64,000 nt of DNA, taken from NCBI RefSeq assembly GCF_016938855.1, contig NZ_JAFHAP010000002.1:62001-126000 (forward strand), given 5' to 3'. Each line of letters starts with the position of its first letter. Position 1 is the stretch's first letter. The notes beneath the pieces were generated by a model that was given only the letters and a program-made list of their open reading frames with translations, made no database searches and was not told the origin of the DNA. Positions 62,330 to 62,987 of this stretch are shown here, one piece after another. The position numbers were made by a program, and so were the translations under genes. Source of the DNA: Polycladomyces zharkentensis (lineage in GTDB: Bacteria; Bacillota; Bacilli; Thermoactinomycetales; JIR-001).

Positions 62330-62496
62330 TCATGTCCGGTTTCATCTTTTCCCCACTCCCAAATTGTTATGCCGTTGGAGAAGGCCTCCCTCTCAAAGAG
62401 TGAATAATATGAGGTGAACGCTTGAGTTTTCCCTGCTGAGCGTTTCTCTGTTTTACGTGAGGATGAAAAAATTCTTGACCGTTTTTGTCGAAACCC

Positions 62497-62525
62497 TTCC
62501 ATGATACGAACATATGTTCTATAAT
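62497..62525 (+). promoter_or_regulatory. promoter overlapped by a LexA (SOS) box
   Basis: The SOS box CGAACATATGTTCT (62507-62520) is a near-perfect Gram-positive LexA site (CGAAC-N4-GTTCG). Its last base is the first T of a perfect -10 TATAAT (62520-62525); a weak -35 (TTCCAT) lies 17 bases upstream. LexA bound here would block RNA polymerase, so the next gene should be induced by DNA damage. Confidence 0.85.
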
Positions 62526-62560
62526 AGGGGTACAAATTACCCTCGTGAAGGGGGATGGCC

Positions 62561-62677
62561 ATGGAACGTTGGATTCAACTAATGGCCGCCATTATTGCGC
62601 TGTTTCGTTTGGTGTTGGAATTGCGGGAACTATGGGGGCGTCGGCAAAAACGGTCCAATCGGAGAAAGAGAAAGTGA
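62561..62677 (+). CDS. 38-residue SOS-controlled membrane micro-protein
   Basis: Frame MERWIQLMAAIIALFRLVLE followed by LRELWGRRQKRSNRRKRK. A hydrophobic N-terminal helix is followed by a strongly basic tail, as in small membrane-active peptides. AAGGGGG precedes the ATG by six bases; an in-frame ATG lies two codons earlier (62555). The strong LexA-box promoter 36 bases upstream argues for regulated expression. Division inhibitors and TisB-type peptides are the known SOS small proteins; no sequence match is claimed. Confidence 0.6.
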   Translation: MERWIQLMAAIIALFRLVLELRELWGRRQKRSNRRKRK

Positions 62678-62744: not shown

Positions 62745-62821
62745 GCGCCCGTAGCTCAGCAGGATAGAGCAGCGGTTTCCTAAACCGCGTGTCGGAGGTT
62801 CGAGTCCTCTCGGGCGCGCCA
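62745..62821 (+). tRNA. tRNA-Arg(CCU)
   Basis: 77 bases with encoded CCA. Acceptor GCGCCCG pairs with CGGGCGC; the anticodon loop TTCCTAA carries CCT, reading AGG; T-loop GGTTCGAGTCC. No variable-arm extension. Confidence 0.97.
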
Positions 62822-62840: not shown

Positions 62841-62987
62841 ATGACTTTGTGATCGTTAGTGGCGGTGTCACTGGGTGCCATTGGAGTGGTCCTTCTCATT
62901 TTGGATGTTGTCACGGGCTATACTCTGTTGTTCAAATGGGGAATGGGTCTGCTTCAAAAGCGGTTCATGCGAAAAATTCACGAGTAA
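62841..62987 (+). pseudogene. small membrane protein with in-frame TGA at codon 4
   Basis: AGGAGG precedes ATG at 62841, but codon 4 is TGA. The same frame then runs on for 44 codons: hydrophobic VAVSLGAIGVVLLILDVV and a basic tail KRFMRKIHE. Either a single TGG-to-TGA change broke the gene, or translation restarts at GTG 62859 giving 42 residues. No selenocysteine hairpin is evident. Confidence 0.5.

What the first reader, a model, noticed from the sequence alone, without database searches (positions are those of the whole stretch)
62497..62677. LexA-box promoter driving a 38-residue membrane micro-protein
CGAACATATGTTCT is a textbook Gram-positive SOS operator and overlaps a perfect -10. 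The only gene it can drive is a peptide with one hydrophobic helix and a very basic tail. Small SOS membrane peptides elsewhere halt division (YneA-like) or depolarise the membrane (TisB). No such peptide is obvious from this sequence alone, so it may be a new one.
Basis: partly seen in the sequence, partly recalled or inferred. Interest (0 to 1): 0.7.

Follow-up and report, generated by a model that had tools for sequence, protein, structure and literature searches.

The report
DNA-damage and sporulation controlled membrane micro-protein
A tiny, previously unnamed membrane peptide gene found in 14 related spore-forming bacteria carries a DNA-damage (LexA) switch and, right beside it, a sporulation (Spo0A) switch, so it may stop damaged cells from going on to make spores; what the peptide actually does is untested.

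Summary
CGAACATATGTTCT (62507-62520) overlaps a perfect TATAAT (62520-62525), 35 nt upstream of a translated-looking 38-codon frame (62561-62677). Box and frame are conserved together in 14 of 14 genomes (10 genera, Thermoactinomycetales), and the peptide profile hits no other genome among 399 of the class. Codon evolution shows a protein under purifying selection, and the box matches those before recA and lexA in the same genomes.

(1) A perfect Spo0A-box core, TGTCGAA (62486-62492), sits at a fixed distance upstream of the LexA box and abuts a degenerate -35; 13 of 14 genomes have the exact composite, with diverged spacer and flanks. (2) A hairpin conserved in this gene but not in its paralogue covers the Shine-Dalgarno. 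(3) A paralogue without a LexA box, convergent with recG, co-occurs in 14 of 14. (4) Sda, the LexA-controlled sporulation checkpoint of Bacillus, is absent from all 42 order genomes searched.

Best reading: a new family of SOS-induced, Spo0A-gated, cationic helical membrane peptides that arrest damaged cells, working like TisB or a sporulation checkpoint but homologous to neither. LexA control is strong, Spo0A control likely, the biochemical action inferred. New variant of a known kind.

The parts
62486..62492 (+). Spo0A-box core TGTCGAA (within TTTTTGTCGAAA, 62482-62493), at about -46 to -40 from the inferred start of transcription
   Evidence: Invariant at the same distance from the LexA box in 13 of 14 genomes; spacer identity 48%, upstream 30%. 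TGTCGAA is the published 0A-box core (PMC3485338). Spo0A DNA-binding domain present in 10 of 10 genomes searched, with TGTCGAA near spo0A itself.
62497..62502 (+). degenerate -35 hexamer TTCCAT, 17 nt before the -10
   Evidence: Only the first T is invariant among relatives; not recovered by the consensus promoter scan.
62507..62520 (+). LexA operator CGAACATATGTTCT
   Evidence: GAAC and GTTC invariant in 14 of 14 genomes; same motif class before lexA and recA in these genomes.
62520..62525 (+). -10 element TATAAT
   Evidence: Invariant in 14 of 14.
62540..62554 (+). hairpin CCCTC-GTGAA-GGGGG covering the Shine-Dalgarno
   Evidence: A stem pairing with the Shine-Dalgarno in all 14 (5-6 pairs in 13, 3 in G027), mean score above all 300 shuffles; absent from the paralogue.
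62561..62677 (+). 38-residue micro-protein gene (copy A)
   Evidence: Homologues in 14 genomes; pS > pN in 91 of 91 pairs; 11 synonymous and 0 nonsynonymous differences over 29 codons between the two genomes of genus g16.
62745..62821 (+). tRNA-Arg(CCU), conserved neighbour, not part of the system
   Evidence: ARAGORN; same order asnB - peptide - tRNA-Arg in relatives.

Best explanation
The locus encodes a founding member of a new family of small, helical, strongly cationic membrane peptides whose gene is repressed by LexA and controlled (most likely activated) by Spo0A. RNA polymerase meets a perfect -10 with a poor -35; a Spo0A box abuts that -35 and the LexA operator overlaps the -10, so strong transcription would need Spo0A~P present and LexA cleaved: DNA damage in a cell entering stationary phase or sporulation. 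A hairpin over the Shine-Dalgarno keeps translation low. The peptide (one helix from residue 2 to about 35, with E2, Q6, R16 and E20 on one face and a basic tail held at the cytoplasmic surface) then enters the membrane and arrests the cell, by self-assembly that drains the membrane potential (TisB-like) or by blocking a membrane protein needed for septation or sporulation. Shown here by sequence: operator, 0A box and coding conservation. Inferred: Spo0A acting as activator, membrane insertion, arrest.
For: Box plus frame conserved in 14 of 14 genomes over 10 genera. Composite TGTCGAA-N15-GAACN4GTTCTATAAT in 13 of these 14, in none of the other 28 order genomes, and in one of about 360 other class genomes with different spacing; the reversed-pattern control gave 0. 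Block identities: 0A core 100% without G027, GAAC/GTTC/TATAAT 100%, spacer 48%, upstream 30%. lexA and recA boxes of the same form: CGAACYTATGTTTG, CGAATAAATGTTCG. LexA and Spo0A present in 10 of 10 genomes searched. Purifying selection. One long helix, mean pLDDT 80. Net tail charge +5 to +10 in every member examined. Sda absent from 42 of 42 order genomes while the Bacillus subtilis control rang; Sda is itself LexA-regulated and blocks Spo0A activation (PMC11925247). Shine-Dalgarno hairpin in copy A only.
Against: No expression or phenotype data. The sign of Spo0A control is not shown; 0A boxes at the sigma-A promoter of B. subtilis spo0A act mostly as repressors (PMC12090719). G027 (Paludifilum) lacks the 0A box. 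The helical moment of copy A is only suggestive (0.375 vs 0.22 for shuffled columns, p 0.086). Families without the peptide also lack Sda, so a replacement of Sda is not required. No antisense RNA promoter conserved near copy A.
Confidence: 0.5

Rival explanations
1. A TisB-like dormancy or toxin peptide of the plain SOS response: it oligomerises through its polar face and depolarises the membrane; the 0A box merely tunes the amount or represses during sporulation.
For: LexA operator, size, single helix with polar residues on one face, basic C-terminus and a sequestered Shine-Dalgarno resemble TisB (hydrophilic face with K12 and Q19 essential, positive C-terminus needed; PMC11449926).
Against: No sequence relationship to any Pfam family; no conserved convergent (antisense) promoter; TisB is reported only from Enterobacteriaceae (PMC11449926).
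Confidence: 0.35
2. A specific inhibitor of septation or of the sporulation pathway (a membrane checkpoint peptide acting on a divisome protein or on a kinase of the phosphorelay), replacing Sda functionally.
For: Joint LexA and 0A sites, absence of Sda in the order; invariant E2, W4, Q6, A10, L14, R16 suggest a defined helix-helix contact.
Against: YneA-like LysM frames are present beside lexA in several of these genomes, so division control may already be covered; no partner identified.
Confidence: 0.3
3. SOS-triggered, holin-like self-lysis peptide of phage origin.
For: Weak PHROGs matches to holin families, best E 0.1 to 0.2.
Against: Fixed chromosomal place between asnB and tRNA-Arg in divergent genera; no homologue found in viral contigs, phages or plasmids.
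Confidence: 0.1
4. The LexA box serves the downstream tRNA-Arg(CCU) or is fortuitous and the frame is untranslated.
For: No terminator-like site between frame and tRNA in the window.
Against: The tRNA has its own promoter-like sequence; the frame is under strong purifying selection at the protein level; Paludifilum keeps box and peptide with no tRNA detected in the 17 kb examined.
Confidence: 0.03

Closest known systems
TisB (TisB/IstR-1 type I toxin, Escherichia coli)
   Same: LexA-controlled, very short, single amphipathic helix with charged and polar residues on one face, basic C-terminus (PMC11449926); translation damped by mRNA structure (general knowledge, not tested).
   Different: No sequence relationship; sporulating Bacillota; longer and more basic tail; a Spo0A box; no antisense RNA seen; a LexA-independent paralogue.
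Sda (Bacillus subtilis sporulation checkpoint)
   Same: Small, under LexA control, would couple DNA damage to Spo0A-dependent development (PMC11925247).
   Different: Sda is not a member of this family (PF08970 absent from the order); the peptide here is a hydrophobic membrane-type helix and carries a 0A box itself.
YneA / SosA (SOS division inhibitors of Bacillus and Staphylococcus)
   Same: SOS-induced small membrane proteins.
   Different: No LysM or extracellular part, not next to lexA; separate LysM proteins occupy the yneA place in several of the same genomes.

Membership tests
LexA (SOS) regulon | LexA operator of the host's own type overlapping the promoter | tested here: met
   GAACN4GTTC invariant in 14 genomes; same form before lexA and recA of these genomes.
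LexA (SOS) regulon | LexA binds and the gene is induced by DNA damage | not testable with these tools
   Needs a binding assay and RNA or protein measurement.
Spo0A regulon | TGTCGAA core in the promoter, conserved, with Spo0A in the genome | tested here: met
   13 of 14 genomes at fixed spacing; Spo0A in 10 of 10 genomes searched.
Spo0A regulon | Spo0A~P binds and changes transcription | not testable with these tools
   The sign of the effect is unknown; 0A boxes can repress (PMC12090719).
TisB type I toxins | sequence homology to TisB | tested here: not met
   No Pfam family at all for the window peptide at E up to 10.
TisB type I toxins | antisense RNA antitoxin | tested here: inconclusive
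   No conserved convergent promoter near copy A; a trans-acting RNA cannot be excluded.
TisB type I toxins | helix with a hydrophilic face | tested here: inconclusive
   Single helix predicted; moment above shuffles but p 0.086.
YneA division inhibitors | transmembrane segment plus LysM domain, divergent from lexA | tested here: not met
   38 residues, no LysM, different locus.
Sda | match to PF08970 | tested here: not met
   0 of 42 genomes of the order; control positive in B. subtilis.

The most novel reading that the evidence does not exclude
A promoter that computes 'damage AND sporulation entry' (LexA off, Spo0A~P on) drives a new membrane peptide that vetoes spore formation in bacteria that lack Sda; its always co-occurring, LexA-independent paralogue (copy B) is its partner, either as co-subunit or as the neutralising half of a heteromeric pair.
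Probability: 0.2. Interest if true: 0.82.

Novelty: new variant of a known kind. Interest (0 to 1): 0.6.

Why it matters
SOS-induced membrane peptides are known, but mainly in enterobacteria (TisB) or as YneA/SosA-type division inhibitors. A peptide gene carrying an invariant 0A box at fixed spacing from an invariant LexA operator ties DNA damage to development at one promoter. It offers a candidate answer to how spore-formers without Sda avoid packaging damaged chromosomes, and it is directly testable with a reporter. It also shows that 25 to 50 residue families can be recognised by conserved control regions when protein databases have no entry.

Tried and rejected
Pairing between the 5' leader and codons 4-7: looked compensatory in one genome but not better than shuffles; dropped. 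A 20-nt inverted repeat linking the promoter (62477-62496) with the coding region (62636-62655): by eye less complementary in G002; treated as chance. Cis-antisense RNA for copy A: no conserved convergent element. Phage or plasmid origin: no homologues. Rfam: nothing relevant beyond the tRNA. PDB by sequence: no match. An ECF-sigma reading of the copy B leader failed because the spacing was not fixed.

Full report
Observation. The box CGAACATATGTTCT occurs once in the window, at 62507-62520, sharing one T with TATAAT at 62520-62525. GAACN4GTTC by itself is expected about once per 64 kb, but joined to TATAAT about 0.0003 times. The frame 62561-62677 encodes 38 residues, MERWIQLMAAIIALFRLVLELRELWGRRQKRSNRRKRK.

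Conservation. Searching whole genomes of relatives found the peptide in the window's own genome and two others of its genus (92-95% identity to the window) and in eleven further genomes of two other families of the order. In a draw of 399 genomes of the class only these 14 match. All 14 keep the LexA box and TATAAT, which ends 33-64 nt before the start codon. The eight gene neighbourhoods examined all have asnB upstream, and 12 of the 14 genomes show the tRNA-Arg(CCU) start close downstream. In G033, from a family without the peptide, asnB is followed directly by tRNA-Arg with no box or frame between, so the gene is an insertion at, or a loss from, this place.

Coding. Synonymous change exceeds nonsynonymous change in 91 of 91 genome pairs (mean pS 0.71, pN 0.24); the two sequences of genus g16 (which includes Kroppenstedtia guangzhouensis) differ by 11 synonymous and no nonsynonymous changes in 29 codons. 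M1, E2, W4, Q6, A10, L14 and R16 are invariant, with L7 and E20 nearly so; the tail varies in sequence and length but stays at +5 to +10.

LexA. lexA itself is preceded by boxes of the form CGAACYTATGTTTG, often with a second box such as AGAACATATGTTCC, and recA by CGAATAAATGTTCG. The peptide's box is therefore of the host's own operator type, and its terminal T (in place of G) also occurs in a lexA-upstream box (AGAACATACGTTCT in G015).

Spo0A. TGTCGAA is the published core of the 0A box (PMC3485338). It lies exactly 15 nt before GAAC in 13 of 14 genomes, Paludifilum being the exception. The composite is absent from the other 28 genomes of the order and appears, with different spacing, in one of about 360 others of the class. 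Identity is 100% in the core (Paludifilum left out) and in GAAC/GTTC/TATAAT, against 48% in the spacer and 30% upstream. The core covers about -46 to -40 and abuts a -35 hexamer of which only the first T is invariant, 17 nt from the -10: the anatomy of an activator-dependent promoter. This is inference; 0A boxes can repress (PMC12090719). The Spo0A DNA-binding domain was found in all ten genomes searched, with a TGTCGAA near the start of spo0A.

Translation. A stem pairing with the Shine-Dalgarno is found in all 14 copies (13 with 5-6 pairs, one with 3); the mean score exceeds all 300 shuffles, although the sequences are related. The paralogue shows none beyond chance.

Paralogue. Every genome with the peptide has a second, better conserved copy (B, 83% mean column identity, GTG start, no LexA box, a terminator, and in most genomes an apparent sigma-A promoter) whose gene is convergent with recG. 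Profiles of A and B are related (hhalign 95.7%). Weaker relatives of B are in G003 (MDDWILLFAAVIRLL...) and in G131, a 25-residue frame MEKWILLLTAVINLVTAIVNLSRKK with two TGTCGAA upstream, near a ParM-like partition gene.

Structure and function. AlphaFold2 gives one helix, residues 2-35, mean pLDDT 80. E2, Q6, S13 (in most), R16 and E20 fall on one face; the helical moment is above shuffled columns but not decisively for A (p 0.086), more clearly for B (p 0.0085). No Pfam, NCBIfam, PHROGs or PDB relative was found beyond noise. The TisB literature shows that such a polar face and a basic C-terminus matter for a LexA-controlled membrane toxin (PMC11449926); this is resemblance, not membership.

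Developmental setting. Sda, a LexA-regulated protein that blocks Spo0A activation in B. subtilis (PMC11925247), is absent from all 42 genomes of the order, with a positive B. subtilis control. LysM-type YneA-like frames lie divergent from lexA in several of the genomes that carry the peptide, though none was seen in the window's own genome. A peptide under joint LexA and Spo0A control fits the missing link between damage and sporulation, but families without the peptide also lack Sda, so this stays a hypothesis.

Verdict. LexA control about 0.9 likely, Spo0A control about 0.75, membrane-associated helix about 0.85, growth or development arrest about 0.5, sporulation checkpoint specifically about 0.25-0.3 (own judgement). 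New variant of a known kind.

Noticed in passing
L033:1590-1712 (own genome G000:C4:28789-28911) and L092: Paralogue B, a GTG-start 41-residue peptide convergent with recG, with its own terminator; more conserved than copy A and co-occurring with it in 14 of 14 genomes.
   Followed up: partly
downstream of copy B, e.g. L004, L008, L011: Past the B terminator lies a conserved element (TCACAA..AATATATG) that on the opposite strand reads like a promoter pointing at B; possible antisense RNA, as in type I toxin-antitoxin pairs.
   Followed up: no
L159:3059-3133 (G131): A 25-residue relative, MEKWILLLTAVINLVTAIVNLSRKK, with two perfect TGTCGAA sites upstream, about 0.7 kb from a ParM-like partition gene; suggests Spo0A control may be older than LexA control in this family.
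   Followed up: partly
L158, G003:C1:1434655-1434738: A 37-residue relative, MDDWILLFAAVIRLLDSIIQFMGRRKKGKKPPPGHDE, with CGAACGTTTTTTCG (one mismatch from a LexA box) upstream.
   Followed up: no
L107 (own lexA): The window's own genome shows no LysM-type YneA-like frame divergent from lexA, unlike several relatives.
   Followed up: partly
window 62859-62987 (+): Another small hydrophobic frame (GTG, 42 residues, MAVSLGAIGVVLLILDVVTGYTLLFKWGMGLLQKRFMRKIHE) just after the tRNA-Arg gene; conservation not tested.
   Followed up: no
window 62477-62496 and 62636-62655: 20-nt inverted repeat, 85% complementary, between the 0A-box region and the coding region; probably chance.
   Followed up: partly
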